Shown here: one piece after another, positions 3,050 to 63,635 of the stretch
Numbering within the stretch: the first letter of the stretch is position 1
How the letters are laid out: each line of letters opens with the position of its first letter
Source of the DNA: Haliclystus octoradiatus
Taxonomy: Eukaryota > Cnidaria > Staurozoa > Stauromedusae > Haliclystidae
Assembly (NCBI GenBank): GCA_916610825.1
Contig: OU744449.1
Coordinates: 20,491,344 to 20,555,343 of the forward strand
DNA length: 64,000 nucleotides
Direction: 5' to 3'
Program-made: the position numbers and the translations under genes
Notes under the pieces: generated by a model
What the model was told of the DNA's origin: nothing
Database searches by the model: none
The model's input: the letters and a program-made list of their open reading frames with translations, nothing else

Positions 3050-4250
3050 GAATAGAATAGAATAGAATTTTTTTCAACAACATGATAAAAAGATATTTAC
3101 AGACTAAAGACATTGATTTGTGAAATATGATTTACAGTGGTTGACGTCATCTCGTAAGCAAAGTTTGCTTGTCTATTGAGAGACGCTATAGAGTTTATGA
3201 ATGACATGGGTAAAAGGTTAAAATAAAAATGATGAATTTAAACTACAGTAAAAGAAAATTAAAAAATTAACTGTAATTAAGAAGTTAACATACTATACAA
3301 AAAAAATAATACAATTTAACAACATACGTAACAGTCTTTGTAAGTGCAAACAGAATAGTAGGATTTTATAATGTTCTTTCGAATATAGTTAATGAAAGTG
3401 TTGGACAATGAATATAAATTTTCAGGAAAGGGATAAGTGAAACCATTCCAAAGTGTTGGAAATCTATAATTTGGTAATGATTGTAGCATTTTTTAGTTAC
3501 AAAAGGAATTTCAAAAACATTCAACTTTCTGAATCTGGATTCATAAAAATTAAACATTGAGAGTGAAAAAGATAGGAATGAATCATTGGCAATTAACAAT
3601 CTATGCATAAAAGAAACCACCTTTAAAATTGTATAAATCTTTGAATTTCAAGATACCCAAATATTTCATCAGTGGCTCGGCATGGGATAGGTACTTTGCG
3701 TTCATTATAATCCTCACACACTTTTTCTGCAACAACTCCAACCGTGAAACATTTGTATGACCCCAAATCTCAATACAATACTCAAAGTGAGGTTTGCATA
3801 AAGAATTGTAAATTATTAGTTTATACTTCAAAGTTAAGAAATTTTTCAGACGAATTAGGGTAAAAATTGTTTTACGTAATTTGGAAGCAACAAAATTGGC
3901 ATGGGCTTTCCAACTGAGATCATCATCGATCAGTACACCTACAAACTTAATGAAATGGTTCTTTTGTAGAGAACCGCAATGTTCCAGAGCATGACCATCA
4001 AGTGATAAAGATAAAGATAAAAGTCTGGCATGGTTGAAAAGCATATATTTACATTTGTCTGGGTGTAGAGTCAAATGATTTTCGTAAAACCAATGTACCA
4101 CAGATTTCAATTCTTTGTCTATTTCATTTTCAAGTTCTTCCTTGTTATTTGAGGACCATTGTAAAGTTGTATCATCAGCAAAAAGGATTACTTGGAATTT
4201 TGTTGAATTGGGTAAATCATTTATGAAAATCAAGAATAATAGGGGGCCGA
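3050..4250 (-). mobile_element. 5'-truncated non-LTR retrotransposon (LINE) fragment
   Basis: A 210-codon frame (3601-4233) encodes the second half of a LINE reverse transcriptase. FADDT, the catalytic YxDD-equivalent, sits near its N-terminus. It is followed by the LTLHPDKCKYMLF and KFVGVLIDDDLSWKAH thumb-type motifs and the HFEYCIEIWG segment. Reading continues in a shifted frame to about 3366. The 3' end at about 3050-3070 is a short GAATA microsatellite on the plus strand, the kind of simple-repeat tail seen in CR1/L2-like elements. The 3' untranslated part (about 3140-3190) resembles that of the LINE at 30547-36100. The 5' end is truncated at about 4250. Confidence 0.8.
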
Positions 4251-4557
4251 GAATACTGTTATGTTATGAAAAATGTTATGCCTCAAATGACAAGGAGCAC
4301 ACAACATAGACAAATTCAATAATATGTAAACTGTAAGAATGTATTTCTTAATCCGTCTTGTAGTGATACAACGCTCTCTCTAACTCTGAGAAAACCTACA
4401 TTGGGTATTTAATGCTGTGCAATAGCTAACAGCCAATCACATTATAGTTATTGTTAAAGTAATTGTTATAGGTGAGCACCAGGCTTATTACATAATATAT
4501 ATATATATATATATACATATATAATAATAATATATGTAAAGTACTTGAGTAAAAAAT

Positions 4558-5069: not shown

Positions 5070-6655
5070 ATCTGATATTTTATTTGATATCATTGTATTA
5101 AAAAATTCAGAGATTTTGAAAAATTTCATAGGTCGATAATCTAGCGGGCAGCCAAATCAAATTCAAATTGAAATCTCCAGAACAAAAATATTTTGCTTTG
5201 AATTTAAAAGCTGCGTGTAAATTGTTTGAACAAGTGAAACTTGAAACTGAATCAGTTTTATGATAATTAAAACAATACGAAATACTGAATTACATTGAAT
5301 TACTAGTATAACTAGGCCAAACAAAATATGTTTTGAAATCAAAGAAACGTAGACCTATTTCATGTAGTGTTGATATCAGCAATACATATAGCGCTGCACA
5401 AACGCTATGAAAATTAAAGAGACTTTAGGTCTTTAATCTATTAATGAAACAAAATGCCGTTCATTACTTTTCACAAAATCGAGATACAAAACATTTCACT
5501 TTTAAAATGGATATTTTGATATATAATTTGTGAGAACACTGAGCAAACAATCTGTTTTGAAATGAATAATCTATCGCGGGGCATAATTAACTTGCAAGAA
5601 TTTTCAAAATGACGTTGGCGTTCGATCAATTCGAAAAATATTCAAAGTTCGAATAGATTATCTGTCTACAGTATAAAATTATAGAGTTTAGAATTAATCA
5701 AGGCATTGCACAAAAGTATTTCTATAATTTATTATTTACTATAAAAACATGAATCATTTGGTTTTGAGCAGGCAGGCTTTTATTTTCAGATTTTGCTTCC
5801 ATAATTAACGAAGGAATTATAGGCATCGATTAAAATTAAAATTTCATTTTGTTGACTTGCTATACGAATAAGACACAGTATGTTACTACAGTTTCGAGAA
5901 TAAAAATAGCGATGTCTTGTTATTATCTTTGATCAACATTTAATAAAGTTAATTTCAGGTATATCAAATTTAACAAAGTTAAATTGAATTGAGCGTGTGA
6001 TTTGTGATAAATAATAATAATTATAATATTTTCAGCGTTCAAAAATTTTGCTTTGAATTTAAAAGCACAAAAACATAATTCAAAAACATTTTTAAATAGT
6101 TAATACATTTTGGATGAGTGTAACAAACCTTGTGTTACAAAAATGAAAAGTGAAAAGGTTGCATGAAATAATCGATCATAGCAAACAATATTTATTAAAA
6201 TACAACTTACCATTTTCCAAATGAGATCCAAATAAAAACTATACGAGCGGCATAATCTCCGAACAACATTTAAATACATAATAGCGGGTTCTCTGAGTTA
6301 ATACACCAATCAATAATAAGTTAACAACCATATTTTATCGAAGGAGAATGTACGTCCGATAAGAATAAAATAAAGATTGTCTTTTATTCGAAATAATTCT
6401 GACAAAAATGATCATTTCATATCGCGATCAAATGCAAGGTAAAGTAGATTCATTTTCTATATAAGTAAATCCTTTTCATCAGACATCATAACATGAGCAT
6501 TTAAATATTACCATCGGCTGTGGTATTTTATATCTTTGAAGCTGCACTAAACATTTCCACTCTATTGTAATGTACCAGAATATTCCAATTGAAAGCAATG
6601 ATAAAAGCAGTTAGTACTCAAAGACAACAACAGTAATTTCTCCTTACTAACAGCT
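5070..6655. other. AT-rich non-coding stretch
   Basis: No gene is recognisable on either strand. A 21-bp word around TTTTGCTTTGAATTTAAAAG occurs at about 5195 and again at about 6046. The sequence becomes abruptly C-rich at about 6660, where the viral block begins. Confidence 0.5.
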
Positions 6656-6660
6656 CCTTA

Positions 6661-8205
6661 CTAGCTAAACAATCCCTTCCTTATAGGGGAAATGCATAGG
6701 TTGCCCCTAAGGACGCCCGTACTCAAGGCAGATCCACCGAAAACATTACTAATCGATAAAGCAGCAAGACACTTCGACTTACCCTCTCTCATTAAACGAC
6801 TCCCTACCTCTTCTTCCACCCACAACAATCTCCTCTCAAACATCTTCTCCCCTAAGTTACGAGCGGAGAACAAACCAGACACGACACTCTCAAAGGAAGA
6901 CACCAAAAACCCGGCAAAATCAGATGAGAAATAATCAGTAAGGGGGATCGGCACCTTCCAGTCACCCAATAACCATCTCGCATACATCCTCTTCGTTAGC
7001 CGCTTCTTCATCCTCTCGACGTGTGGCAAACTCTCTACATCCACGAATCTCTCCTCCTCACCCCTATCTAAAGCTATCCTCTCCAGCACACCACGCACAG
7101 CCCCCGACAACTCCCTGCTCTTCTTAACCTTCACCGGTCGATCAAGCACTTTTCCGATCCACCTCTCCCCTACTACAGGTTCGAAGAATTCCTTCTCCAC
7201 CTCAATACGACCCAAGAGAGCAGATTCCCCCAGACCCCACCCCCTCACTACGGCCTCTCTCACTCTGTCCCACTCCAAAAAAGACAATTTCCACCCGCTC
7301 AACCTCCCCTTCCATGCCCCGAGATCAGTAACTATCCTCTTCAAAGGCCGCAACACTCTAAACCTCAACCACAAACCACCCCACCCTTCTCTCAACACCC
7401 TTCCAAAAACACACCCTCCCCAAACGCCCCCGCCCCCCATACTCACAGGTGTTAGACAAAAAGACCTCATCTCTTCCTCACTCATCCCTGCCTCCACCCC
7501 ATCAGCAAGCATATGCCCAACCACCTTCCTCCAGACGCCACCCCTTACCCCCAGATGATGCCACTGGCTAAGCCTACTACTTACTCTCATCCAACCGGTA
7601 GGTGCCACAGCGAGGATAGGATTGCGCCATAAAAGACTCACTATACTACGCGCCACGTACCCGCTAATCCTTTTCTCACTTATCACTTTTCGCAAAAACT
7701 CTCCTCTCTCCCTACTGAAAAATATCTTCCCGGGATTCACTTCATACCCGATCTTCTGGTAACAATCTATCATATAACGCACCTGCCTGAGATTCTCCAG
7801 ACCGAATATGATATCGTCACATTGGGCACAAAAACCGTGGACACGAACATTCTCACCCAACCTCTCTTGTACCATATTTCTCACAACTCGAAACGACCCG
7901 ATGTTTAAGAGTGTATCCAATAACCCGGTCCAACGCCAACCACTCCCGACCCCATTTTCCCACACACTCCTTTTCCCCATGTACTCAATCAAAGGTGGCT
8001 TTTGCTCGAAACAACGCACTATCACCTCTGCCACTTCACCGACCTCCCCTCCAACCTTCTCCTGGATAAAATCCGCGATTACTCCTAGACACACTAGAAC
8101 GCTGCTTTTCGACTGATGTTGGTCGAATTGAGATTGGTCGAAAGGAATTTTCCAGATACTCCTATCCCCACACATTAACCGTTCCTTTTCCATTACCCTG
8201 TTCAC
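6661..8205 (-). pseudogene. Viral fossil, RdRp catalytic part (motifs A-C)
   Basis: The frame opens upstream of any ATG: the codon at 8205-8203 is GTG and the first ATG is at 8193. Motif A is FDQSQFDQHQSK (residues 22-33), carrying the catalytic Asp. Motif B is SGWRWTGLLDTLLN (88-101). Motif C is QCDDIIFG (128-135), where the usual GDD reads CDD. VNPGKIFFSRERGEFLRK follows as the motif D/E region. About 310 further residues form a thumb and C-terminal extension. The motif A and B style is that of toti-, megabirna- and related dsRNA virus polymerases. One long open frame of ~510 codons remains, so the copy is either young or constrained. Confidence 0.8.
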
Positions 8206-8981
8206 GCCACTCGCCCCCCGAATAAAGTAGACACATCACTGCCGAGCAATCCCCCTTCCAAAACGTGACTCACATAATCCATCTTCCGAAATAACTTATT
8301 CCCACTTTTTACTACCGCCCGAACCTTCCCACTCTCTGATTTTTGCATAACTTTGATCACATCTTGAGTCACCTCCTTCAGCTCTTTACCAACATCAGCA
8401 TCACTCAAATACTTAGCATCAATGGTCTTATACCCCCTTGTCCGCCTCCTCTTCCCATCTAACCACACTTCACTCTTCAATCCGTCACCTGCTCTACCTC
8501 TCGTCCATACCCCAGTATGAACCCAGTCCTTAATGCTAAACACATCCTTCGGCCTGTGCCACTCTTCCTCTAACACCCCGCGGATCTCTTTCTCCAAATA
8601 GGACAGGTACGTCCTCTCGCCCAACGGTCCGCCTAGCAATAACTTCCTTTTCAACCAGAAAGTTACATCATCAGCTAGGTCCTCCTGCTTATATTCCCGA
8701 TAACCGAAGAACGTCTCCCAATACACTAACCACTCATACCACTCACTCGCAAACCGACCCCCCATCTTAAACACTATGCTGACCTCCTTTAACGTCTTCC
8801 TCCCCTTACAACTACAACAACCGCTGACCAAACCCCTCACACTCTCCATGACGCTTCTTGCCCCTCTAGGTGCTATACTGTACAACAACCGGTAACACTG
8901 GGAGAAAACCCCTCCACACCGATCACCCTTGTACCTTCGTAAACCCCTAGAGAAGGCATTCTCTTCCTCGTCCTCCATCAA
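8202..8981 (-). pseudogene. Viral fossil, RdRp N-terminal part
   Basis: A 259-codon frame resembling the fingers region of a toti-like RNA-dependent RNA polymerase. Residues about 219-227 (KVRAVVKSG) fit the basic motif F that contacts the incoming nucleotide, followed by KMDYVSHVLEGG. The WHRPKDVF...DWVHTG segment upstream also fits this family. It ends at a TGA (8202-8204) just before the frame carrying motifs A to C, in a different phase, so the polymerase is split by one frame change. Low similarity to other RdRp groups is expected. The toti-like assignment rests on the combination with the downstream motifs. Confidence 0.7.
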
Positions 8982-9352
8982 CCCCCCTTACACTCGCAAT
9001 CCAAACCCTCTATCGAGACCCTCACCTCCTTACACGCCTTATCCCACGTATAATCCTCCTCTACCGCCAACTCTACATCGCAACCACCCCACTCTACACC
9101 TCCATCTTCTCTTCTATCTCCTTCTCTATTGCCAACCCACTCGCTTCCGGTACCAACACTTTGTCTATCCCGGACTTCGATAGCTCGCGAGACTCGATAG
9201 CTGCAGAAGTCCTGTCCTCCGTTGACTTCTTCACCTCGGTAACCTCCCTTACCTCGGCGCAGCTTACACGCCGAAAATCCGGCACGTCCACATCCCCTAC
9301 CATCAGCTGATCCTCCCTTCCATACCACCGCCGTTCCACGCGGCGCCCACAC
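8978..9352 (-). pseudogene. Viral fossil, linker frame (124 codons)
   Basis: A frame lying between the capsid-side and polymerase frames, rich in Gly, Arg and Glu. Its stop (8978-8980) overlaps the ATG of the polymerase N-terminal frame (8981). A second frame in another phase covers 9094-9339, and either could be the original one. The overlap may reflect the old viral gene junction or simply decay. Confidence 0.35.
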
Positions 9353-9357
9353 CCAAC

Positions 9358-9609
9358 TCAGCCGAACCCTCTACCGTTATTGTTGAACGTTTCGCACCTC
9401 CAATCGCTAAACCCCAACCATCTCATCTCCCCTAGATAGGCGTTGAACCACTGGCTGACGCACCCCCAACCAACTACTGGCTGTCCATCCCCCGGACACC
9501 CACCGGCCGGGAACGCCCAGCCTCCGAGAGTCCTGCTCTGGATGTTGCCCGCGCTGATATAACGCCCAGCATTCGCCTCACTCACCGCAAAACCCATCTC
9601 AGCAGACAT
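9358..9609 (-). pseudogene. Viral fossil, capsid-side fragment (83 codons)
   Basis: A short frame in the same phase as the 294-codon frame. It has a GGWAFPAGG-like Gly/Trp-rich stretch and a WFNAYLGEMRWLGF segment. It stops near 9358 and the same phase reopens at 9339-9094. It is probably the C-terminal part of the capsid protein, broken by a stop. No motif supports a specific function. Confidence 0.4.
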
Positions 9610-9679
9610 CTTCAGGCCTCCCTCCGTCCAATCTAACTTCTTTGAGATCCTGTCGATCTCCCTCCAGTCTGCGGGTTTT

Positions 9680-10636
9680 TCACGCCTCCTCCATAGCCAA
9701 CTTTCTCTCTCCCCCCCCTAGCAAAGAACCTTTCTCTAACCCCAAGTCTTTAAACTCGCAATCCTCACCCACTTTACTATCTACCCACCTGCAAATACCC
9801 GTCCTGATTCCCGTACGACTTTTCACGAAATCCTCACCCAGCAACTCATTTACAGCGTAGGACCACCTACAATCACCACACACCACCTTCAACACTTTAC
9901 AAGCGATTCCGTTGTCGCCTTTCAATCCCCTGAGCCGCTGTGATCCTCTACCCAACCTGTCAGCACCGACCAACCCATCCACGATCCCTAGCCCGACCTT
10001 CACGTCTTCAAAGGCATGCCTCAGCGCACATACCCGCTCCTTTATCCCGCTCGGACTGTCCAAACGTCTCTCCACCAGACCATCTCCACCCCATATGACC
10101 TCGGAAAAGTCACTCCCAGCTAACCAGTTGGCCAGAAAAGGCCAACAGCCCAGCTCCAAACTTTTCCTGGCGATACTCAATTTCCTGCTACCTCCAACCG
10201 AATCACACCAGGTCACCGCCTCACCTTCAACACCCAGAATCCCTCTATCCCAGCTCACACGCCCATCCCTGCCTAACCTTCCCTCCTCAGGTACCTTGAA
10301 CCAGGTGCACAGCAGACCTCGTAGAATATCTACCTCCGACCACCTGGCCCCAATATCCACCTTCCAGGTCCTCTTCAACAACTCACCATATACTTTCCTC
10401 AGATCGAAAGGACTACTCATTGCAGACTCCAGGGACGCGCTCAACTCATCACTGACATCCCACGATGTCACCACACCCTCGATCCCAGTTCCGGCCCGGT
10501 TCGACCTACAGACATCAAAAAGCCTGCCCCCCAAGTCCACACTCCCAGCCCCATCATCTCCACTAACGAAGACAAGCTTGGTGACCTCCTCCCCCTCAAA
10601 AGACACAAAGCCTTCATTAAACCCCTCGAACACCAC
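9680..10636 (-). pseudogene. Viral fossil, capsid-side frame 2 (318 codons)
   Basis: A second long minus-strand frame, in a different phase from the 294-codon frame upstream. The composition is similar (Gly, Val, Leu, Arg, Glu and Trp rich). There are no motifs I can name. A capsid-protein continuation is the most likely reading, given its place between the 5' frame and the polymerase. The plus-strand frame over 9912-10709 is its antisense shadow. The frame is lost near 9.68 kb and coding appears to resume in another phase at 9609. Confidence 0.5.
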
Positions 10637-10674
10637 ACCACCAACATCCTCACTCCCCTGGACACTTATCCCGC

Positions 10675-11559
10675 TTAAACGTTCGATGAAACCCCCCCCC
10701 CCCCGATAAGACCTCCATCCAACTCCGAGATCAAGGTTACTGCCAGCTCCTCACGGCTCAACCCCCCGTTCAACCAGAGGACTCTCAAACTTGAATCTGC
10801 CAAGTCCCAATCTATACCGTCTACCTCCAGCTTCCAACCTCTAGCAGCGCACAACCCCACCACCGAACTGCTAACAAAAACAGCGCGTACGCCCTCGCGC
10901 TGCATGGTGCGATCCCAATACACCTTCCTCCTGTTAGCCTTTATGGGAGCGATATTCTCCTCTCCTATACAGAAATCCCTTTGGGCACTCCTCATCCCCT
11001 CTGCTAAACCCACTTTCAGCATCGGCACCCGCAAGTCAACCTGCACGTCGCTTCTCTCCTCAATCACCTTGGCCTCCACAACGCCACCCTTCCTACTCCT
11101 CACGTACTCGTGGCCCTCTCTAAGGCTAGTCCCGGCATCTGTCTCCCCTCTCCCCCGAGCTGCAGCTAACAGCTTCAAACCTGCGGGATTCAACCCTATG
11201 ACATCCTCCCCAAACTTCCCCTCTTGCCCGACTCCAACCCACCTACCTCCAACCGTTGGGACTTCAACCCACGTAGGAGCATAGTCACTACCGCCGTCAC
11301 TCCTACTTAACCCCACTCTACCCTCCCGCTCCGGGTATACCCGTCGCACATCCTCCGCTTCAGCCCCCCCAATGTTCCGATCCCCGATCTTGATCTCATC
11401 CGGGGTCACGATCAACTGGTTTGCTAAGTCAGTTTCTTCAGTGTCAGTGTCAGTCAGTTTCTTCAAACCTTTTCTCTTAAACTTCAACAAGGAACTCAAC
11501 TTAAAAACGATTGTGAAATCTCTCACAAAGTACAAAAATACATAAAGGGGAATGACCAT
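10675..11559 (-). pseudogene. Viral fossil, capsid-side frame 1 (294 codons)
   Basis: This is the most upstream long frame of the viral block. The first ~25 codons (MVIPLYVFLYF...) are AT-rich and may be chromosomal flank read through, because the G-rich coding style starts only after about residue 30. The rest is rich in Gly, Val, Arg and Glu, with no signal peptide or membrane segment and no recognised motif. Its position upstream of the RdRp suggests the N-terminal part of a capsid protein. It ends near a run of 13 C (about 10691-10704) that could have caused the frame change to the next piece. The function is inferred from position only. Confidence 0.5.
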
Positions 11560-13700: not shown

Positions 13701-13737
13701 GTTGCAAACGTCAACCTGATCGTTTGGCTCTTATCTT

Positions 13738-14139
13738 TTGGGTATGGTTGATAAAACCAAAGTTTACATTCTATTAGTTGGTATATTGAAAATTGCGGTA
13801 TTTATAAAGAATTTACTGCCTGGTAATTTGGTTTTGGCCGACAGAAGATTCACAATCCAAGAGAGTGTTACAATGACACATGCAAAACTGGCCATTCCTG
13901 CCTTCACCAGGGGAAAGGACCAACTTGATGTTGAAACGACAAGAACAATTGCCAATGTGCGTATTCATGTAGAGAGGATGATTGGACTGTTACGTCAGAA
14001 AAATAGTATTCTACAGAGAACCCTGCCAATTGATTTCATGACTGCAAGTGGACAGAGTAAAGTACCTACAATTGACACGATAATAAGAGTATGTGCTGCA
14101 CTGGTGAACTTATGCGCACCGATAGTCCCGTTTGATTAA
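13738..14139 (+). pseudogene. Harbinger/DDE_Tnp_4-like transposase C-terminal fragment
   Basis: A 133-codon plus-strand frame. [15 protein letters not shown] contains the second catalytic Asp region of DDE4/HARBI1-like nucleases. [10 protein letters not shown] and [19 protein letters not shown] carry the final catalytic Glu (HVER). [19 protein letters not shown] is the usual C-terminus. The N-terminal half is absent: the frame begins abruptly next to the hAT relic on the opposite strand. A true start codon is therefore unlikely. Confidence 0.75.
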
Positions 14140-19837: not shown

Positions 19838-20187
19838 ATGGTTGGCGTCATGAAGGGCATGCAGCCATAAAACGCAACACACTTGAAATAATAACCAATT
19901 TGCGAAGACACCCTGTTGAAAAATAGCTACCAACTTACGTGGTTTGTGGAAAATTGATATTTTTAATGCCCCACAAAGGATGATAATGAAAAATCAATCT
20001 AACAGAACTGTCCACAAAATGTCCATGGACTGTCCATATACAAGTGTTCATGGAATGTTTGTGGACTCAGTAATTGTTATTGAAATTTTTAATTGAGATT
20101 CAAATTCATAAATGTTGCTTTTTCCTACAGAGTATATTTTTTAATGCTTGTAATTGTAATGATAAATTGTTTTAAACTTCTTTTCAG

Positions 20188-23100
20188 ATTAAAGATGGTT
20201 CTCATTTACCTAGTAACATATCATTTGATCAAAATTCATCTCCAATTACCAAACCATTAAAGTCTTTATCAGAGCTACAATCTTGGATTCCTGGCTATGA
20301 TGAGTTTAATGTTGCTAAAGTAAAGCTACGACGTGTCAAGAGTGAAAATCCATCAAAGCCAAAGACATTACTTTGTCATGATATGCAGGGTGGCTACACA
20401 GACGATAGGTAAATCTAATATTTAACTGAAATGCTACCAAGATATTATAATTAGAACTACGATAGTAGGCCTACAATCCAAATTTGCATTTTCAAGAGTT
20501 TCAAAAAGGTCATGTACATGGCTGTTTTATACCTTAATTTTGAACACATTTCCGTTGTCATTCATGTCTAGTTATTAATTAATTTCAAAAGGTTAATGGT
20601 CTTGAGTGTCCACAACCTTTTTATTGGATCCTTATAGTTTTCATTATTGATATTATTTTATTTTGACATCCTTTCATTTAATCCATCGCCTTGTTATCCA
20701 ACCGGGACTGAGCATGCAAAACATGCACCAATGTTATCAGCTGTGCGATTCATGTACGACATCGAAAAGTTTTCTAATTAGTCTATCTGCAAGGACGAAA
20801 CACCTGTCAGACCAGCCACCTTACCAATTAATATTCTTCATTTATTGTATTTTATTTCAAGATTTCCGCAAGGAATTGCTTCCAACACATGCTATACATT
20901 TGACTACTGGAATTTCATAGATACGTTTGTGTACTTTAGTCATAATCTTGTGACGATCCCACCTCCGTGTTGGGTCAATGCTGCGCATTGTAATGGTGTC
21001 AAAGTGTTAGCAACATTTATAACTGAGTGGAAAGATGGATCTGAGACCTGTGCTGAATTTCTTGATAATAAATATAGTTGTAAAAGGCTGGCAGCTCGTT
21101 TAACTGAAATAGCATGTTATTATGGGTTTGATGGTTGGTTGATTAATCTCGAAAATGAGATTAAGGTACCGTATATATTTCTTTGCATTTGTACTTCTAC
21201 TGTTTTACTGTACATCTTAAGTTTGTGAAGGTTGCCATTTGCATGCTATGTTTGTTATACATTTTTCCTGAGGTAAATTTCCTCACTTGTCACCTACTTA
21301 TGGTTACAATTTCACATCATTGATTAGTCAAGGCAGTTTCTGTTCCTGTGTAATATATTTCAATATAATGTTTGCCTATAAGAAATCCACTGTAAGTATT
21401 TGTATAATAACTAATTCGATTTCATCAATTTGATTGGTTAATTGCTACTTCACCAAATTACCGTATCAACACAACCAGAAACCTCGGAGGTTTAAAAACG
21501 CAATAAATGCAATTGATCTTGCAATTCAATCTTAGATGAACCAAATGGGAATTTCAATTTAATCAGGAATTCATGTCATGTAAACCACTTACCTGCCTGC
21601 AATTTATATGTCATTATTGTTGGGATTGTAACAATAAAGAATTATACAACCTCGATATTTGATAAGAGAAAATGTTAAGAGCCAGAATATATATGGGTTC
21701 TTTGTAAAAAGATGAATAAGATAGAAAGTAATACCTTACATTTCTCTCTGGGCTACGACCTGTCAAGTTTAAGTTGAGCATATAAATATATTGCTAGTAA
21801 CATATATCATCTATAATACAATATTTAATTTTTATAATAAAATACCAAGCCTAATCTCTAATCAGTCTTTTGAAAGTCCCACTTAGAAGTCAATCTATGG
21901 ACAGTTGATGAACATTATTACACTCCGCGTGCATGTTATGTAACTTTCCTGAACTCTAATTGACTGACCTCTTTGTCAAATATTATATGCATTCAATCTT
22001 TGGTAAATTGTGATGTAACCTTTATAATTATTTATTTGCATTGATGAATATTAACACCATGTTATTTCACCATTCTGTTTTCATATCTGCAGCCTTTACA
22101 AGTTGATAACTTGCGTTACTTTGTTAAAGAGCTTACTGAAGTTATGCATCACCGCATACCTTTGTCTCAAGTTATTTGGTATGATAGTGTTACGTATAAA
22201 GGGAATTTGAAATGGCAAAATGAATTGAATCAAGACAACAGGTAGACTCTAATAACAACCTTTTCGTTCTGTTCTTTAATATACTAATGAGACTAACGAA
22301 GGATAAAACAATTTTGAATGTTTTATCTTTAGTATTGTCGTCACTTTATCATGCTTCTATGTTCCCTGTTTCAACTTACGTTCTCGGTTTGAAATCCTTA
22401 AGAGCCATTTCCTCTATGTAGGATAGGATTACTGTCATACATTGGTAATGTTGAACAATTGATTTTCGTTTATATAAGCTGAGGAACCGCAGGAGTTTAT
22501 AAAACTGTAGAAATTGGCTATTTAACATATATTACATATCCAGACATGACAATTTTTACACTTTCGACAGATTTCAGATTATTTCCACACTTCAAATTCT
22601 ATCAAATAGCTAGATACAGTCAAACTTGACCAGAGGGAGAATATTAAGCAAGTTCGACTTTAATCCCTGATTTCAAACTATTTTATATTTTATTCAATTT
22701 TTTGTTTGCATATTGGTTCATCTTCAGGATGTTTTTTGATGTGTGTGATGGTATATTTCTTAATTACAATTGGTCTGTTCATCATTTGGCACGGTCAGCA
22801 ATTATTGCTGGAGAATCACGCCATCATGATATTTATGTTGGCGTGGATGTGTTTGGCAGGGGCTGTTTTGGTGGTGGAGGATACAATTCATACAAGGTGG
22901 GTTTCACTACCTACAGTACCATTCTGATAAGTTTGTTTACTGGAATGTCTTGAATATTAAGCAGCCATGCTCTTGCTCAAACAAATCTTGAATATTTAAT
23001 AACAGCCAACTTCAAAATTGAAAAAACATGCCTTCCAACAACTGTTCATGAACTGTTTACACGTTATTCATGAGGTTCATGAATAGTCCATTAAATTGGT

Positions 23101-26100
23101 AATTAAATTTTGAAAATCATTAAATTTTTATCCTCTTATTGTATTTTTATTCCAATTCATCTTTTTCAAATTAAATGATAACGACAAGTAAATAGTAGGA
23201 GGATTATTGACTTGCCCAAGTCTCACTTTTACTATGACGATTTTGATATGTTGGTAAGTGACCGCGCGCTTACCGCTCGTCAAATTGCGGTATATCAAAG
23301 CGGGACTTATATATCAGTCAAGGAGGATTATTGCAACGTTGTTATTATTCACTTTGAAATGTTTTACTTATAAATTGAACTTTTGCTTGCCTATTTGTTG
23401 ATTTAAAACAATAAATATTTTCAAAAAAATTATCTTGCAAGTTATCTTTATGTTCCTTTTTTAGAACATTTGATTTTAATTGTCAAATTATCTACTTTTC
23501 TGTCTCTACTTCAGGCAATGCAGGTAATTAGAGATCAAAAATTGTCTGCAGCAATATTTGCTCCTGGATGGGTCCTGGAAGTACATGGTATACCAGACTT
23601 TCAACAAAACCAAAAAAAGTAAGCAATCCTCACATTTGTAATAATTGCTAATCATGCATCACAAATCAAGTACATGGCATTTCAGGATATCAGTATAGGC
23701 CCTTTGTTCTTGTATATTGTGTTGTTTGGTGAAAGGAATAAGTAGGGTGCGATAAAATGGGGGATCTCAGTCCTGGAAAGCTAGCCCAAATTCAGAAAGA
23801 AGGGTTGGAATAGTTCAATAGTAACTGTTGTAATCAAGTTTTTATAATCAGAAGAAAGCTAATGTGCTTTATTTTCTATGGAAGATCTGTAAAACGATTA
23901 TCATGAACTTGTATTAGAATGACCCCTAAATAAAAGCTGTGAAAAATTTACTTGATGTAATCACGGGGAAAACTTTTTGAATTCCGGAAGCAAGAATATT
24001 TTCTGTAGGCAAACATATTTAAATCATGCTAACTAAGTTTGATATACCAATGTACCATTACTTATTTAGTATTTTTGGATTAAATTTGATTGGTAATGGA
24101 ATCATAATATTAATTAGAATGTGTTTGAGGTACTACTCTAAACTTAAACTTTTATATTTTTAGATTTTGGGGGTTATTACTTTCGTATTTATATCCTCAT
24201 TGTCCTTCATCTCTTCCTGTGTCAACGTCATTTTGTAGTGGGTTTGGTAATGCAGTCTCACTTAGAGGAGAGGTATACTATCTATGCCCTTTCAACATCA
24301 TTCTCAAAAATGTATTATATAACATCTGTATGCGTGGCTCCTGGCCGCAAGGGAAAATTTCAGGCCTTGGGGAATTTGTAGTAGGGGATTTTTGCAAATT
24401 TAATTCTGAAATATGTTTTCCCACTCCACTACGGAATTTTTCAGTAATGCATCTGCAACCAAGGCTTGAATAGACAATCAGAATGTACTAAGTAAACCTT
24501 TTGGGTCCTATAAATTGGCTGTGTGCTCAGCAACTCCTTCCTCTTTAGGCCATTGCATTGCCTGGCATATCAAAGTCAATGTCGTTTTTACACAACCGTA
24601 TTCTATTGTTTCTTGATCAGGTTGTGTCTTCATCCCCATGGACTAATATCAGTACTCAGCAACTACAACCTACTTTTGTTAGTAACGTTTATCAACTTGG
24701 AAAAGGTTGTCATCCAACTATTGAAGCAGTTGGTCCATCAAACCATCATGCATACAATGGAGGTGGTTGTATGACTGTAAATGGTATAATTAACAAATCA
24801 GAGAATAAGGCATCATCTGTTACAGTAGTAAGGTACGTATGTAGTATTATTATCTACCTCTAATCAACAACAACAAACAGCTGTTTCATCAATTGTAACT
24901 ATAAACCCTAATTCGATTTTCACTTTAAAGAAAAATTCTGTGATATTTACCCTTGAACAATATATTATTTTCATGGATAGAAGTTAGCTGGGCTATATGT
25001 AGATATAGCTAGTGCCAGATTTAGAGGTATTATAAGCACAAACTTTAGACCCAAGCAAGATGAGGCCTTTTCAAATAAAAACGGCCTGTTTACAAAAAAG
25101 AACTTTGCACATTGATCTATTGTTTGACTTAACAAAATGATGAGAACTAAGCAATTTATAAATTATATAATAGATATTTAAACAAACAGAGAAAGGCTTT
25201 TGCATACCGGTAGTCCATTATGTAGCTCCTTTCTTAGTAATTGAAATGGAACTATTTCACAGTAACTTTTAAGCACTTGTAGTTTACTATGAACGAATCA
25301 CTAAAAAATATCACATTTATTGTTTGAGTTTGAAGTGAATTGTTAATAATTTAATAAACGCCATATTAAATTCAGTAGAAACTTCCGTGTAACATTATAT
25401 TTACACTTGGTACAATGAGATGTATTCAATAATCTAATACTTACTTGCTTGGCAAGCAGCTTTATTACCTACCTTGCTGTTTTCACCACAAAACCAATTT
25501 CATTTGATGTGTTAATTAAATCCTTCTAAAGGTTCCATTACATCGTTGTATGTCTAGTGTCCCATTTTAAATTTTGAATTTTTGCGTTCAGACAGAATAT
25601 TTGATTGTCAAAATAACGTTTTACTAGGTACCCCAGCTTCCAGAAGGCATTAGCAATAGCAAACATATTGGAATTGTCTACATCTAGCTTAAAATCGATG
25701 TGATGTTTGTTTACCTTGTACTGTAACCGGGTCCGTGTAAAAAATTGATGGATCCATAAACAATTTTTTCAGAGTTCAAGAGCAATTCATTTGCCTAAAT
25801 TTCCATGAACATATGTCTTCATGGAATTTTCATAAAAAGTCCATAATATTTGGAAATGTTCATGTTCATGAACTCATGATCTTTTGTTTTACAAGGGATA
25901 AACCCTATGTAACGCCACATGGGTGAATTCCATATTATTCTGTCGTATAACCAAACTACGACTTGGAGATTGAACAATGAGAGATAAGACAGATTTGGTT
26001 TAACTTCAATAATGTAATTCAAACATAACATTACAACTCCCACTAACCGACTGATTATATTAGCTTAGTCGAGTTGCTTTATAGTTAACGCTATTCTAAA

Positions 26101-29100
26101 TATAACAATTACTAATTAAACAGAAACGAGGATTACAACATTAAAACGAGGATAGTCAGTAATAAGACATATTCAAAATAGGCTATTTATTCAAAATTAC
26201 AATAAACTGTTCATTAAAAAGTTCAAAATATATAGCGTTCATGAACTTATTATTTTACTTTTTATGAGCTGTTCATGAAATATTCAGGAACTGTTTCTTG
26301 TTCGTGGACTTTTTAGGGATTTCCTTACCATGAAGAGTTCAGCAAGTCCATGGATGTATGGACTTCTTTTCATAGGCATATTATGTGGACTTGAAGTAAA
26401 TGCATGCAACATTGCAATAAGTAAGCAAAACGTTGCCAAGATATAGACTCTTAACAAATAATTATTATATTTATACCAGATTGTTCCGTACTAACATTGA
26501 AGTCCCAAAGAAGCCTTTTTTCATCTCGTACACTTATTCATCGACATTGGATTTAGATATTTTGGAGCCATATCTCATTGTTTTACTGGAAAAAAGTGGT
26601 TCATTTCGCTATCTAGTATTCCAATCGTCAGATGATAGCATCACCAATGGAGATAATGACCTGAAAAAGGACTGTAAAAGTGTGCAGCTCTCATCTGTTT
26701 CTAGTAAACTTACTTACCCAGTCAATGATTCACAGAAGGACTCTTACACAGCTTTTCAGCCTGTTGATTCAGCTTCTCTAGATTTGATTGCAATGGTTAA
26801 CGAAGATGTTTATAATGGAGATTGGCATTCGAGGTGAGCTATTTACACGTTAGCAGTATGTTTTTACTATTTGTTGACCCTCGACAATATGTTGCATTGC
26901 AGATTCATTTCTTTGGCCACTTAACTTCAAGTAGTAATCTTTTGATCACCGACATGCATATCGACCCTTTTTCAGAACTTGATTGCATAATAGCTCAGTG
27001 GCAGAGTGTCTGCACTCTGTGCGGGAGGCTGGGGTTCGATTCCTCGTCGGTGCACACATATTTGTATTTCTCTGTAAATGTGTTCATGTCCTCCAATAAA
27101 CAAGTACTTGTGCTCACGGGGTGAATAGCAGTTATATTATCTGTAGTTAACTGAAAATGTAATATTATTATTATTATATTAATAACTGTCCATACAAAAT
27201 TCATATACAACAGTAAATTATTTTTATTAGTGATTCGAACGACGTTTCGACAGTTTAATACTTCTGCCATTTACAAGTTAAGAGAAAATCAAAATACATG
27301 TTATCTATTTACGCAAAATATTATGAACATTTTTTATTAAAATAAACTGACAAAGTAAAATAGTTTTGAGATGCTATTCATAAAAAAGATGAAACCAACG
27401 CTCAATACACAAAAGGACTCCATTGAAGTCAAAAGTTTTTGATAATATTTTTTAAAAATGACTCTTTTGTTAATATTTCTAATGTAGTTGTTTTTGTTTT
27501 GTTATTAATGTAAATACTTGTAAAAATTGTAAATTTGTTCAGTTATTTTGAAAATGATCACTAGTGATGATCGAAACTTTGTCCTTCATAAATCTTGTTG
27601 TCACAAGTCGCTTTTTCTGTCAAATGTTAGAGTAGTAGATAAAAAGAGATCTAAAAAATGTTTGAAAAGTGGTTGCTACATTTATCAGAATTCTAAATAG
27701 GTCATAGCTTTCCTAACCAATGTCTTATTTTACTTCAGGGCGTATTGTGTACCCGAAGAACATTTTAATAATGATGAAATCATCAAAGAAGTGAGACTTG
27801 GTCTTGTTTCTCACTCTACGACAGGTAAACAAATATATACTTAGCTTCTATAAGAAAGATAACAGTAAAGATGTTCATTTCGAATATTTGAACAAAGGTT
27901 TGATTTAGGATAAAATGAAACAGCTATCTATAGGCCTACAGTATGAAAATCTCAATTATCAGCTTTTTAAAATATTCCGTTATAAGGTTTTTGTTCATTC
28001 TTGCAAATGTATATTCACAGGTACGGATTATTTACACTTTGATTGCCTTCCAACATACGCATAAGCCGAAGGTTGTGGACATTCTTCCGTATCATTACTT
28101 TTTTACTACTGCATACACCAAACAGTGCTCACGCTAATGTAGAAACATTTACTTCATTAGAGAAATTTTTTAATCAAGATAATATAACTATAAGAAAATT
28201 TGCACTTGCAGTAAGAAAGTCTTTTCTTGCTATGTGGACAAGTTTGAATTCCTTAGTTTCAATTAACAATCTAATCATTCGGAGAAAAGGTTTTACTCAT
28301 CCTCAAACATTTTCAGTAAAACAGTTAATTTTTCTAACGTTTTTCATATAACGAGAGTTGAAGATGAGTCTTACTAGATGGCAGGATTTATTACAAATAT
28401 AGAATTAATTTGATCATTTTGTATGTGTTTAGAACCATGTTGAGAGTCTATAGGCACGCTGCCTCTTTTGATGCCATCCAACGATGACACATTGCTTGCT
28501 TCTGCTATTTTACTATCCCATTTACTTTTCAATTGCCAAACAATCATGGCAGTCATCATTATACGATGGCCCAAAATACATTATTACAACTATTTTGTGC
28601 TTGTGATTTCTGATTCAGCCTTGTCAATGTCATCATATTTGTTTTTAGATTTAGATGTTTCTGACTTTAGTTTTGATTTGGGCGACTTCAAGGTCAGTGG
28701 TTTGATCTTTATATTTATTCTAAATTGTTGCAATATACTACTTACTTTATGTATGATACCCATAGACTTTGAATAAGTCTATGATAATACCCTAATATCA
28801 TGTCATCTTCATTCCAAGCATTTTCAAGCAAATCTACCACTCACAAACTCAACAAATTTCCAAACTTACATCAATTAATTCCCTAATCATTCGGGTTGAC
28901 TTGAATATAGATATTTTACTTCTAAATCATGAAGAATACCAATGTTTAGCCTGCTCGCAGACTCACTGTCAAAATGTAAACTTAGTAAACAGTAGAGTCT
29001 GCTAACTCGAGGACAAAAGCTTGCTATTGCTGATTCAGCACGGGGCGTGGAAATTGGCTGCCTCGCTTTCGCCATAGATTATATAATACAGGGATTGACA

Positions 29101-32100: not shown

Positions 32101-35100
32101 GTCATCTCTGTATAGGCCAACGTTTTTTATGCCATACTTTTTCGCAATTTTTTCTAATAAGAAGAGGCCGACTAGTTCGCAGATTTCAGCCCCATCGTAG
32201 CTACCCATCGTAGCGTCAAATAAATTGCCATTATTTTTCTTCATCCAAGCAGTGTCGTTGTCAAATAGCAGTGACTTTCTCGCGTGCATTATAGTTTTTA
32301 TATCCTCGGTGGTGATGGCCATTAACAGGAAAAGGAATATAATCTGGTTTAACTTGCCGTTCAGCCAAAATGTGGATACCAACATTGCAAAGATATTTTT
32401 AGCGATGATTGACAAACACTTTCCGATGGCCCATAGACTCCACAAAATTTTTAATAGAAATAATGTTAAGGTATCCTACAGCTGTATGGCTAATGTCGAA
32501 ACTATAATTAGAAGCCATAACAATAAAGTCCTAAGTGACAATGGCAGCACTAAACCTAAAAAGACTTGCAACTGCCGCAACAAAGACAATTGCCCATTGG
32601 ACAAAAAATGCCTATCCTCAAGTCTCGTTTACAAGGCCAACGTCACAACGACACATGACAGCGTAGGCCAAAACTACATCGGTTTGACGGAAGGCACTTT
32701 CAAGCAGCGCGCAGCCCAACATAAGAAGTCCTTCAAAACAAAGAAATATGCAAACAGCACAGAGTTATCCAAACACATTTGGAAGCTCAAGGAGAAGCAT
32801 ATCAATTACAGCATAAAATGGTCAATACTAGCCACAGCGGCTGCCTATAGTAACAAAACTAAAAAATGTAACCTATGCCTAACGGAGAAATTCCATATAA
32901 TTTATTATAAACATGACAATTTACTAAATAAAAGAACGGAACTCATTTCTAAGTGCCGCCACGAGAACAAATATTATTTAAGAAACTATAAGAATAACAA
33001 GTAGATATTTAACAATAGCATAGATAATACAATAGAATGTAATAAATATATTTAAACAATAGAAACGCTTCATTAAGTCATGTATATACTTGAGCACACC
33101 GTAATGATTTTTCATTTAATAAAACCGTCTGAAGAGCGTCTTTACGCGAAACTCAGAGTAACGGAATAAACTCGTGATCTTTGATCTACTATTTATATTG
33201 CTCTGCTTTTAGCATTGAGCACTCAAATTGATGTTTTGCCCACACAATTACTTTATTAATATACATATATATATATATAACTTTTCTAGGCCTACGGATG
33301 TTAAATACATGATGTATATAATAGTTAAGTTAAAAACATTAGTTGAGATATGGTAAGTAGCATTAGTTAATAGATTATCTAGATACGGCTGTTAAATAGA
33401 GTATGTATAATAGCAATGTTGTAAAGTATTAGTTGATATATAGTAACATTAATCATCTAAATTCGGATGTTAAGTTAAGTTACAGACATAACAGTCATGT
33501 ATCACACAATCAATGACATAGTTGTCAAGCATGTGATCTTTAATTAAATGCCGGAAGTCTGTTGAAGAAGGGTCGATGTCATAGAACTTTTTGTTGTTCC
33601 AAAGGTAAGGTAGTCTATAATTTGGGAGGTTTTGCAAGAAGGTTGTTGCAGCGAATGGGATGTGAAAGATATCACGTTTTCTCTTATCAATTTTAATGTA
33701 TAGAAAGTTAGAAGATACAATTTCAGGAGCAGGTTTGAAAACAACTTTTTGTAGGACAGCAAAAATTTTCAAAAGATATAAATCTTCTGATTCCAATATT
33801 CTCAAGTTTTTCAGAATTGGAGTTGTGTGACTCAAAAATTTAGCATTAACAACAATGCGGACACATCTTTTTTGGAGTTTGCTCAACTGACTAAGATTTG
33901 AAGCATGACCCTAAATAGGAATGCTGTATTCTATGTGTGGTTGAATTATTGAAGAATAGATTTGTGCTTTATGACGGGTGGTAAGAAAGTCTTTGAGTTT
34001 AATCAAGGTGTAACAGAGTCTGCGTACTTTCTTACAGACGAATTCAACGTGTTGTTTAAAATTAAGCTTGTCATCAAGAAATATGCCAAGGAATTTAATA
34101 GACGAGTTGGAACAATTAGTCCACATCGTTCAATAGATAAGTTGTTCAGTGAGATATCGAGATTTCTTTTCATTGGGTTGTTGAATATCATATAATTTGT
34201 TTTGTTTTCGTTTAATGTTAGTTGATTATCAAAAAACCACTTGGAAATAATGTTAAGTTCATGATTTACATTGTACTGGAGCTTAGTGAAATCAGATTCT
34301 GATAATTGAAGTGTGGTGTCATCAGCAAACAAACTTATATGGAATTTTGAATTTGAAGGCAAATCATTTATGTAAATTAAAACTAGAAGTGGTCCAAGTA
34401 TGCTTCCCTGAGGTACACCACAGGTAATTGTCTGAGGCGCAGATGTAATATTGTCGATTGTGACAGCCTGTTGCCTTTGAAAAAGATAATTTGAAACCAC
34501 TGGAACTCTACATTGGTAAAACCATAATGGCACATTTTTTGTAAAAGTATTTTGTGGTTGACGGTGTCAAACGCCTTTTTTAGATCTAGAAAGATGGCAA
34601 TATGGTGTTTGCTAGATCGATTGGAAAAGATGTTGCTCAAAAAATTTAAAATGCAATGAGTAGTTTCATATGACTTGCGGAAACCAAATTGAAATTTAGT
34701 TAGAAAATGTTCTTCGAAATATGGGTAAACTTGGTTATAAACTATTCTTTCAAAAATTTTGGAAAAAGTGGTTAATAAAGAAATGGGTCTGTGATTCGAG
34801 AGGATGTGGCGATCACCTGCTTTAAAAATGGGTAAAATTTTTGCGAGTTTGTACTCGCTTGGAAAATATCCTGTTTTGAGTGATAAATTGATAAGGTAGG
34901 TTAAGGGTGATAGGATTTCAGCATGGACATATTTCAAACATTTATTGGAGACAGAGTCAAAAGACGTACTGTTTTTATTTTTCATTTTTTTTATAGCTTT
35001 GGAGACAGTATTTTGAGAAACAAGTTTGAATTTAAATGATGTATCAGGATTGGGAGGCAAATAGCGCTTGAAATTGTCAGTGTTTGAAAATTTACTGGCA

Positions 35101-38100
35101 AGCTGAGGTCCAACATTTGTAAAAAATTCATTAAAGGCTTCAACAATTTCAGATGTGTTCACGATTTTTCTGTTATTTACGTGAAAGAATTCAGGAAAAC
35201 GATTTTTCTTTTTATTTCTGCCAAGGAGGTTGTTTGTGGTTTTCCATAAAAGTTTAATGTCATTTTTGTAGTGTTTGTAAAAATAGTCCCAATATAAGAT
35301 TTTTCTTTTACGAACAACTTTGAAATAAATTTTTGTGTAAATGTCATACAAATTTTTAGTTTCAAGATTTTGAGTTGTGATCCATTTATGATGTAATTTC
35401 ATTTTACATTTTCTAGAAATTGGGATTCCTTTGGTCATCCATGGGTTAATTTTTTGTTTATTTTTGTTTAAATTTGTGTGAATAATTGGACATGCATCGT
35501 TAAGACAAATTTGAAATTGGGTATGGAATTGAGAAAAAGCTAGGATCATCTAGAAGGTACCAATTGCACTGTGAAAGGTGATTTCTAAGAATTTCTAGAT
35601 TGGTATTACTGGTATTGCGAAAAGAAACAGATGTTGATATTGTCTTTTCTTTAGATTGAAAATAAGCAAAAGGACTTAGATGATCGGACAAATCAGTTGT
35701 GATAATACCTGTTGTTAAGTTATTTTTGTAATTCGTAAAAATATTGTCTAGGAGAGTGCATGATTTTTTAGTGATTCTTGTTGGTCGAACAGCGAGTGGA
35801 AAAAACTTGAAATCCATGCAGCTTGTGATTAGATCGTTCAGTTTTGGAGATTCAAGCAACATGTTAACATTGAAATCACCACCAATGAACACTGTTCTAT
35901 GGCAATAGGTAGATAAAACATTTCTCAAAATTGAAATTGCATTCGGAAAATTTGAATGTGGAGGAATGTAAACTGATACAAACACAAAACGTAAGGATTC
36001 AGCTACAACAATTTCGATGTCACTATTAATTTTTGATAATAATTCGTTTTTAGTGCAGTTTAGAGAGTTATGGACAACTAATCCAATATATTAGACACAT
36101 CTCCAGAAATGTACGAGGAAATAACTCATTCGTAGTAACTTTTGAGATGAGCAGATTCATTTGGTCGCGAACAAACCTTCATCTTCATCGATTCGATGGA
36201 TAATTTTATATCAGTGTGTTTTGATCGTGTGTGAAGGGTTACTGACACCGTTAAACCACCTTTAGTTTTCCGAATCCTTCAGCAATATAAGCATTAACGT
36301 AAACTTCTCTGTAGGCGCGCTTTTCTAAACTTTCACCGATTGAGTTCGCCATTTTCTTCATCGCCTTCCACGTTTAAGAAATTCGAAGTACTGAAAGTCA
36401 TTGCCATTTAATTGACCATCCATTGCAAAATAATGAAATAATCAAGCGTACATTTATTACTAGCCAGCTTAAACTCTTGAAGATATGAACGATGATAACA
36501 TGAGTAAAAAGACCAGTCTACCGCGTTGTTGTAATGACACTTGTGAAAATTTGTCACAAAATTCTTTGTCGGCTCAAGAACACGTGTTTCCGGTAAATCT
36601 CAAACAAAAACATATTTCATGCCCAGACCTCAGTTGCCAATCCCTGTATTCTATAATCTATGCTTTCGCTAAGAATGCTTGGCCATGAAAGTCAAGCCCA
36701 GAAAAAGACCAACGACTCCAACCATATTAATATTAATTTACTTGAAACTCATTTACGGCAAGTAATTCACAATTAGATTTACGGAAGATTTCTAGTTTTC
36801 ATTAAATCTGAATTAGACTTTAACATCAGTAATGATCAAATGGTCTACTGCATTAATTCATGCTTCAACGGAATAAAACTCTAGCCGCTAAAAATTAAAA
36901 TTAAAATTAACGAATTTAAATTAGACGCGTGATAGACTTATTTTGTCGAAAGAACGAAGCAAATATAGAGTATAACATAATGAAAATAAGAAGACGACCA
37001 AATACAATGGCTCAACAATATCTTCCTTTCTATAGCCATTAAATACTGCGGCTGAACTAAAGTGTTTGTTGTTTGTTGAATTAATTTTCCTTGCCATGTT
37101 GTTTTCGTGTCCCGCCTCTCCGCTTGAATACTGTAGCTTTTGAATAAAAACACTGTCCAAAACATTTCATACATTTATGAGACTAATCCGAGATATTACT
37201 AAACATAATTGATGCAATTACGACAGTTATTGGTTCCAACACGTCTTGGAAATGATCTTAATTCTCAATTCCTGTCATTGATTTTTAATCGCAAATGTTC
37301 AAAACGATTTCGAAAGGCATGCAACTTGATAGAAAGTAATAAGGAGGGGAGTTATTGCAGTCTAGCCCACCAAGCTTCTCTTTGAAATACTCTTCGCTGA
37401 TTCGTCGCCAGAAATCATGGCGTCGATGCACAGCACTTATAAGACAATATTTTTTACACCTTTCCACGCCCCATGCTGAATCAGCAAAGGCAAGCTTTTG
37501 TCCTCAAGTTAGCAGACTCTACTGTTTACAAAAATTTATATTTTGACAGTGAGTCTGCGAGCAAGCTAACCAATGTTCAGTTGTAGAAAATTATATCAAA
37601 TTCACTTGATTCACTAATTAATTGGTTGAAAATTTGGATAGTATCCTATCCTATCCATCTGAGCGTCTTGTATCATTCATTTTTCTGTGAAACAATTGAT
37701 AGCGGGAAATCATTTCTGTTATAGCTGATGGAATATGTCAAAGGATGTTTATTTTTTTAAAACAACGCCAGAAAATCATAATATTTACCACACATCTGTT
37801 ACTGTACCACATTATCTCGATACAAATGTTTGCACAATTTCCCGACAACAGATTATCTGTATTAGTTCGCCAGTGAAACGTTATTTATTTACAAACAGAC
37901 AATACTATTAATATAGAGATGATAACTTAGGTAACACGCTCTACGCACGATAGGTTTCAAGATCTATAGCTGTTATAATAGTTCAGCTGGTCACCGTTAG
38001 GTTGAGGACGAATGAAGGTTAATGTGACCGTTGATAAACACAGCCTATATATTTGGGGTCCTCTATAAAGGTGGGCCAGTTTTGATTACATTACGGACGG

Positions 38101-43834: not shown

Positions 43835-56991
<13,157 letters not shown>

Positions 56992-59281: not shown

Positions 59282-63635
<4,354 letters not shown>

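What the first reader, a model, noticed from the sequence alone, without database searches (positions are those of the whole stretch)
6661..11559. Near genome-length endogenous toti-like RNA virus
A 4.9-kb GC-rich block in an AT-rich animal genome carries RdRp motifs F, A, B and C in the right order and a long capsid-side region upstream, all on minus. Most endogenous copies of dsRNA viruses are short fragments. One this long, with a ~510-codon polymerase frame still open and only about five frame changes, is unusual. It has no reverse transcriptase of its own, and the genome around it is rich in LINE and Penelope retroelements that could have supplied one.
Basis: partly seen in the sequence, partly recalled or inferred. 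Interest (0 to 1): 0.88.

Follow-up and report, generated by a model that had tools for sequence, protein, structure and literature searches.

The report
Fossil RNA virus in cnidarian genome
A 4.8-kb piece of a toti-like RNA virus, holding nearly its whole polymerase gene and probably part of its capsid gene, lies in a chromosome of a jellyfish-related animal, where relatives of the same virus have been written into the DNA several times, once inside a mobile element.

Summary
Window 6655 to about 11,417 (minus strand) is an endogenous copy of a toti-like RNA virus: a nearly complete RdRp (all 15 protein hits match both of its pieces, the widest over 8966-6763; best E 3e-73, Shuangao toti-like virus 3.6e-71) and about 2.3 kb of upstream coding sequence, capsid by position only. 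It is 3'-complete and 5'-truncated, roughly two thirds of a genome. By one gene tree the host is a medusozoan cnidarian. The 262-Mb assembly holds at least four more related loci. One on contig 7 (96% nt) shares the exact 3' end but not flanks or 5' end. Between these two copies 100 of 123 coding differences are silent (random mean 38), so they diverged as virus and entered separately and recently. Neighbouring repeat units show the empty contig 7 site: 88-92 bp of target lost, no duplication, no poly(A), TTTT/A context; LINE-type target-primed reverse transcription fits best. On contig 2 a capsid-side piece of a related virus is fused in frame to the gag of a BEL/Pao element with two identical 431-bp LTRs and a 5-bp duplication. 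Frame changes sit at C runs and may partly be assembly errors.

The parts
6655..11417 (-). whole toti-like endogenous element (5' part of the viral genome missing; 3' end complete)
   Evidence: 3' limit = point where homology with the second copy starts; 5' limit by composition change point, 11,402-11,422
6664..8235 (-). RdRp, C-terminal piece with motifs A, B and altered motif C; reads on past the relatives' C-terminus
   Evidence: PF02123 1.2e-11; 15 protein hits; tblastn
8205..8987 (-). RdRp, N-terminal piece with motif F
   Evidence: 39-42% identity to P0002/P0001; 15 of 15 relatives by tblastn
8981..9370 (-). start of the RdRp frame, overlapping the end of the capsid-side frame; continuous with the N piece in the contig 7 copy; selection not clear here
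   Evidence: open frames of both copies; 10 silent/10 replacement differences over 9001-9370
9097..9717 (-). end of the capsid-side coding region (one in-frame stop near 9.36 kb, absent from the contig 7 copy)
   Evidence: open frames; 14 silent/3 replacement differences over 9361-9702, but 4/8 over 9100-9357
9683..10750 (-). capsid-side coding piece, 356 codons
   Evidence: 24 silent/9 replacement differences in this frame over 9712-10303; no family match or homologue
10678..11430 (-). capsid-side coding piece; 81% aa to a fragment on contig 2
6641..6663 (.). 3' junction: the terminal 9 bases of the insert occur twice with 5 bases between
   Evidence: sequence
11427..11465 (.). 5' junction zone: 14-base direct repeat, 25 bases apart, at the composition boundary
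3604..4263 (-). neighbouring LINE-type reverse transcriptase fragment
   Evidence: RVT_1 8.4e-10
34383..36090 (-). neighbouring LINE-type endonuclease and reverse transcriptase frames
   Evidence: RVT_1 4.7e-14, Exo_endo_phos_2 3.5e-09
20176..26837 (+). host ENGASE gene (GH85), used to place the host; exon limits approximate, read by eye
   Evidence: Glyco_hydro_85 7e-42 in 20782-21225; homologues; tree

Best explanation
Shown: the block is a chromosomal, broken DNA copy of the 3' part (roughly two thirds) of a toti-like RNA virus, nearest by RdRp to the insect clade of Shuangao and Linepithema toti-like viruses but on a long branch of its own, in what one gene tree places as a medusozoan cnidarian. 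Shown: at least one sister copy from a different strain of the same virus lies elsewhere and its differences built up under viral-type selection, so it entered independently. Inferred: viral RNA reached germ-line cells; a LINE-type reverse transcriptase used a nicked chromosomal 3' end as primer, started at the exact 3' end of the viral RNA, which has no poly(A), and stopped early, leaving a 5'-truncated copy. The copy cannot be working as a virus and is most likely an inert relic, or at most a source of antiviral small RNA (untested).
For: RdRp homology in 15 of 15 hits, up to residues 28-780 of 781 in one of them. Best viral folds are toti-like RdRps. Chromosome-scale contig with a host ENGASE gene in a medusozoan clade, 100/99. 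Second copy on contig 7: same 3' end to the base, unrelated flanks, different 5' end. 100 silent, 23 replacement, 0 stop changes between the copies against random means of 38, 79 and 5 (2,000 shuffles, maximum silent 54); 125 of 142 differences are transitions. Empty site for contig 7 from neighbouring tandem units of about 1.92 kb, insertion after ...AAAATTTT. LINE-type RT frames in the window.
Against: No target-site duplication was found: in the window the longest word shared by the two end zones is 8 bases, reached in 460 of 500 shuffles; the contig 7 site lost 88-92 bp and shares 4 bp with the insert, which non-LINE repair could also give. The window's own empty site was not seen. Of the five loci, three (contig 7 at 13.2 Mb, contig 5 at 22.1 Mb, contig 2) do not show the viral 3' end, so the 3'-anchored pattern is 2 of 5. 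A BEL/Pao element captured related viral sequence, so another reverse transcriptase is available. Capsid identity rests on position. No reads, expression or small-RNA data.
Confidence: 0.87

Rival explanations
1. The copies arose by one integration followed by duplication inside the host genome.
For: 96% nucleotide identity; two of the frame changes (about 8.21 and 9.71 kb) have the same phase in the copies that cover them (2 of 2 and 3 of 3).
Against: Unrelated flanks, different 5' ends, same viral 3' end. Differences sit at third codon positions, 96 of 123, and dN/dS per piece is 0.05-0.16, which drift of broken copies does not give.
Confidence: 0.05
2. An LTR retrotransposon (BEL/Pao), not a LINE, supplied the reverse transcriptase for the window copy too.
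For: On contig 2 a fragment of a related virus is fused to BEL/Pao gag between identical LTRs. The family has at least 31 loci with an open frame of 1,832 codons.
Against: blastn of the BEL/Pao frame and of the contig 2 LTR, leader and gag found nothing in the window or in the contig 7 flanks L009 and L010; no long direct repeat flanks the window copy (500 against the window); both copies start exactly at the viral 3' end.
Confidence: 0.15
3. The frame changes are mostly not decay: they are run-length errors of the assembly.
For: The overlap zones of all 4 frame changes of the window contain a run of 6 or more C, while the frames on both sides are constrained.
Against: Such runs are also natural slippage sites; the run near 8.98 kb differs between copies, and the stop near 9.36 kb and the altered motif C are not run-length changes.
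Confidence: 0.4
4. The shared frame changes at G runs of the viral strand are a feature of the virus (programmed or polymerase slippage).
For: At about 9.71 kb three copies keep one phase although the run length differs by a multiple of three; at about 8.21 kb both copies agree.
Against: Relatives read through the 8.21-kb place in one frame; no exogenous relative close enough was available.
Confidence: 0.1
5. The element is a domesticated host gene kept by selection.
For: Long open frame and low dN/dS between copies.
Against: Constraint covers RdRp and capsid-side frames alike and both copies are broken in several places; motif C is altered in the window copy.
Confidence: 0.03

Closest known systems
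Toti-like EVEs of planthoppers and other arthropods (PMC10636211, passages read: 5,686 in 593 species from 1,188 genomes screened)
   Same: Non-retroviral toti-like capsid/RdRp sequence in chromosomes, frames usually broken, several per genome, lengths to 10,814 nt.
   Different: Host here is a cnidarian; separate entry of strains is shown by the excess of silent change; the exact viral 3' end is seen twice.
Black soldier fly TotiEVE T1 (PMC9231314, passages read)
   Same: 3,750 nt with partial capsid and RdRp; close to a virus of the clade with Leptopilina, Linepithema and Shuangao toti-like viruses.
   Different: Insect host; the RdRp here is nearly whole.
Shuangao toti-like virus and Linepithema humile toti-like virus 1 (exogenous)
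   Same: RdRp homology over nearly full length, about 32-33% in the C piece and 34-39% in the N piece.
   Different: Exogenous insect viruses; the window element is on a long branch outside the 14 relatives in a midpoint-rooted tree, where long rows are unsure.
LCMV-IAP chimera in mouse cells (recalled, not looked up)
   Same: RNA virus sequence joined to an LTR retrotransposon during reverse transcription, as proposed for the contig 2 element.
   Different: Contig 2 has an in-frame gag-virus frame of 650 codons between two complete LTRs in a genome assembly.

Membership tests
Non-retroviral endogenous viral element | Significant homology to an RNA virus that has no reverse transcriptase stage | tested here: met
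Non-retroviral endogenous viral element | Joined to host chromosome on both sides | tested here: met
Toti-like virus (Ghabrivirales) | RdRP_4 polymerase with motifs F, A, B, C in order | tested here: met
   motif C altered in this copy
Toti-like virus (Ghabrivirales) | Capsid gene upstream and overlapping the RdRp gene on one RNA | tested here: inconclusive
   Upstream coding region overlaps the RdRp frame; no capsid homologue or usable fold found
Toti-like virus (Ghabrivirales) | dsRNA genome in isometric particles | not testable with these tools
   only DNA is available
LINE-type target-primed insertion | Complete 3' end, variable 5' truncation | tested here: met
   2 of 5 related loci, with different 5' ends; the other 3 are fragments without the 3' end
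LINE-type target-primed insertion | Target-site duplication | tested here: not met
   88-92-bp deletion at the contig 7 site; none seen in the window
LINE-type target-primed insertion | T-rich nick site at the 3' junction | tested here: inconclusive
   AAAATTTT/A on contig 7; AATTTC in the window; the consensus TTTT/AA is recalled
LINE-type target-primed insertion | Poly(A) tail | tested here: not met
   absent in both copies; that toti-like RNAs are not polyadenylated is recalled
BEL/Pao LTR retrotransposon (contig 2 element) | Two LTRs with TG..CA, short target duplication, gag of the family | tested here: met
   431 bp identical, GTGTT on both sides; gag part 99.5% to another locus; a related 1,832-codon frame has Peptidase_A17 1.7e-41 and Integrase_H2C2 6.4e-09, RT and integrase core below Pfam cut-offs
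BEL/Pao LTR retrotransposon (contig 2 element) | Own pol gene | tested here: not met
   no pol domain found in the 650-codon frame and no other long frame seen between the LTRs

The most novel reading that the evidence does not exclude
A toti-like RNA virus has infected this cnidarian lineage over a long time and entered its germ line again and again by two routes: direct 3'-primed copying of viral RNA (window, contig 7) and capture by an active BEL/Pao element, which fused viral capsid sequence in frame to its gag and inserted as one LTR-bounded unit with identical LTRs.
Probability: 0.62. Interest if true: 0.82.

Novelty: new member of a known kind. Interest (0 to 1): 0.64.

Why it matters
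It extends toti-like EVEs, which the papers I saw describe from arthropods, to a medusozoan, and suggests that viruses close to the 'insect' clade had cnidarian-infecting kin. Because two strains entered separately, virus evolution and later decay can be told apart. The exact 3' end and the empty site make the integration route testable. The contig 2 element is an LTR retrotransposon-like unit carrying RNA virus sequence in frame with gag. My searches showed no paper on toti-like EVEs in cnidarians (2, 7 and 1 papers, judged from listings; one search was too wide to judge); subscription journals are not covered.

Tried and rejected
Capsid homologues: protein search with piece 9680-10750 found none at E 0.001 among 7,995 scored (its length filter excludes proteins over about 620 aa). 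Single-sequence fold of that piece: pLDDT 34.5, unusable. IMG/VR scans with the Shuangao RdRp and with alignment A1: 5 and 117 stretches matched, 0 confirmed. PDB sequence searches: the N piece gave 29 rows, 28 of TAL-effector type and 1 isocitrate dehydrogenase, taken as spurious although E reached 3e-07 (no stretch passed on its own in the 28); the C piece 1 chance row; profile A2 22 weak RdRp rows at 0.011-0.047. PDB fold search: none at E 0.001, rank 1 a cellular Abi-P2 polymerase. PHROGs: none. Direct repeat at the window ends: no more than chance. tRNA and Rfam scans of the window, and Rfam of L009 and L010: none. Pfam rows above E 0.1 and DUF5382_C at 0.009 were below the curated cut-offs and set aside.

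A Pfam PF02123 count over the whole genome was asked four times and never answered, so other toti-like loci may exist. DNA searches of the window flanks for an empty site were planned and not run.
Full report
What is there. The block is rich in GC and in C on the plus strand against a background near 33% GC. Its minus strand carries an RdRp in two overlapping open pieces, 8205-8987 and 6664-8235. Pfam RdRP_4 matches the second at 1.2e-11. A search of 5.8 billion proteins scored 7,996 candidates and kept 15, led by a Logan protein (3e-73) and Shuangao toti-like virus (3.6e-71), with Linepithema humile toti-like virus 1 fourth; 3 of the 15 are from the moth Scirpophaga incertulas. All 15 match both pieces by tblastn, to differing extents; Linepithema virus residues 39-306 and 323-795 of 796 fall between 8966 and 6763. 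The fold of the C piece (pLDDT 72, 14 rows) matches toti-like RdRps best among viral models; the PDB search gave nothing at E 0.001 and its first row is a cellular Abi-P2 polymerase at 0.009, so the PDB alone could not decide.

Capsid side. No family, homologue or usable fold identified 9097-11417. Most of it is nevertheless coding: codon statistics trained on the RdRp prefer one minus frame over most of it, and comparison with a second copy shows selection in those frames. I call it capsid by position and by the usual gene order of toti-like viruses (recalled). The stretch before the RdRp, about 9.0-9.36 kb, where frames overlap, shows no such excess of silent change (over 9100-9357, 4 silent and 8 replacement in frame 0, 5 and 7 in frame 1).

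Host. An ENGASE gene lies at about 20.2-26.8 kb. In a tree of 29 of the 120 listed homologues (1,376 found) plus the window, it falls in a clade of 8 rows (100/99) with Hydra, Hydractinia, Clytia, Rhopilema and 3 unnamed rows; its place inside is weak (86/56). The genome is 262 Mb in 33 contigs and the window starts at contig 5, 20.49 Mb. A staurozoan would fit, but that is recall only.

Other copies. Own-genome searches found: contig 7 at 15.771-15.775 Mb, 95.7% nt over window 6774-10304 plus the last 118 bases at 94.9%; contig 7 at 13.245 Mb, about 94-95% over 8995-9849; contig 5 at 22.113 Mb, 65% over 7192-7728; contig 2 at 11.983 Mb, 72% nt over 11123-11405. These are lower bounds: only best candidates are scored, and the PF02123 search did not complete.

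Independent entries. The window and the contig 7 copy differ at 142 places over about 3.5 kb, 125 of them transitions, with 5 indels of 1 or 3 bases. In four piece frames I counted 100 silent, 23 replacement and 0 stop changes; the same changes scattered at random gave on average 38, 79 and 5, and at most 54 silent in 2,000 runs. dN/dS by piece is 0.05, 0.10, 0.16 and 0.07. The divergence therefore built up while the sequence was in use as virus, and little has changed since entry: with 5 replacement changes on about 1,020 sites of the RdRp C piece, post-entry change is at most about 0.25% per copy if all of these came later and fell evenly (inference). I do not turn this into years.

Junctions. 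Both copies begin at the same base (window 6655) beside unrelated flanks, the mark of the viral 3' end. The window repeats the last 9 bases once more. The contig 7 copy lies in an array with a period near 1.92 kb; neighbouring units show the empty site: the left flank stops after AAAATTTT, 88-92 bp are missing, and the right flank resumes with 4 bases shared with the insert. The 5' ends differ, about 11,417 against the equivalent of 10,304. A LINE-type, target-primed start fits; the deletion and missing duplication are atypical. The contig 7 copy has about 300 more bases between the RdRp end and the last 118 bases than the window copy, so the window copy seems to have lost that stretch together with the normal RdRp end.

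State of the genes. In the window copy the capsid-side frame is interrupted near 10.69, 9.71 and 9.36 kb and the RdRp near 8.98 (at its start) and 8.21 kb, and motif C departs from the 12 aligned relatives, a change not shared by the contig 7 copy. The contig 7 copy is broken too, partly elsewhere. Positions invariant in 11 relatives (of 15) are kept at 61 of 76 (C piece) and 19 of 22 (N piece), against 93-100% and 54-100% when each relative is left out in turn; given the low post-entry change most of these departures are probably viral. The overlap zones of all 4 frame changes contain C runs, and two keep one phase in every copy that covers them. Assembly error, slippage at copying, or a viral feature remain open.

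A second route. The contig 2 locus is an element of 3,673 bp with two identical 431-bp LTRs (TG..CA), a 5-bp duplication GTGTT, a purine tract before the 3' LTR and a TGG start after the 5' LTR (reading these as tract and primer site is recalled knowledge). Its frame of 650 codons joins gag (PF03564, 3.6e-12) to about 310 codons, of which about 109 match the window's capsid-side piece at 82%; the rest of those 310 is taken as viral because gag homology ends at residue 336 and composition shifts there. The gag part is 99.5% identical to another locus up to the joint and has 112 scored matches of 461 candidates in the genome, 31 with a frame of exactly 1,832 codons. One such frame carries Pao peptidase (1.7e-41) and an integrase zinc-binding domain (6.4e-09), with RT and integrase core below Pfam cut-offs. 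The matching capsid-side part was found only once outside the window. No BEL/Pao sequence was found in the window or in the contig 7 flanks held.

Relation to print. Toti-like EVEs are common in arthropods and can be long (PMC10636211, PMC9231314; passages), and ants hold coat-protein EVEs near Shuangao toti-like virus (PMC6540820; passages). Other papers were seen in search listings only. The element is thus a new member of a known kind, in a host phylum for which my searches found no toti-like EVE, with unusually clear evidence on how it got there.

Noticed in passing
G000 contig 2:11982269-11985941 (L017 1443-3392 minus for the frame): LTR-bounded element, LTRs identical, with BEL/Pao gag fused in frame to toti-like virus sequence; no pol found.
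   Followed up: yes
G000 contig 7, about 15.7687-15.7788 Mb (L009, L010): Tandem array with a period near 1.92 kb around the second viral copy; one frame looks Penelope-like by eye (recalled), but Pfam gave no match.
   Followed up: partly
G000, 31 loci listed with open frames of 1,832 codons: A BEL/Pao family with many intact long frames, which looks recently active.
   Followed up: partly
window 51209-51961 and 59416-59789: Very long TTA/ATA trinucleotide arrays of about 750 and 370 bases.
   Followed up: no
P0012, P0014, P0015 (Scirpophaga incertulas): Moth genome proteins related to the same RdRp; P0012 has 683 aa on a 2.3-Mb contig, suggesting long toti-like EVEs there too.
   Followed up: no
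window 13720-14136 and 16197-17409: DDE_Tnp_4 transposase (4.9e-18), and neighbouring frames with Peptidase_C48 and a weak PHD match, perhaps DNA transposons.
   Followed up: no
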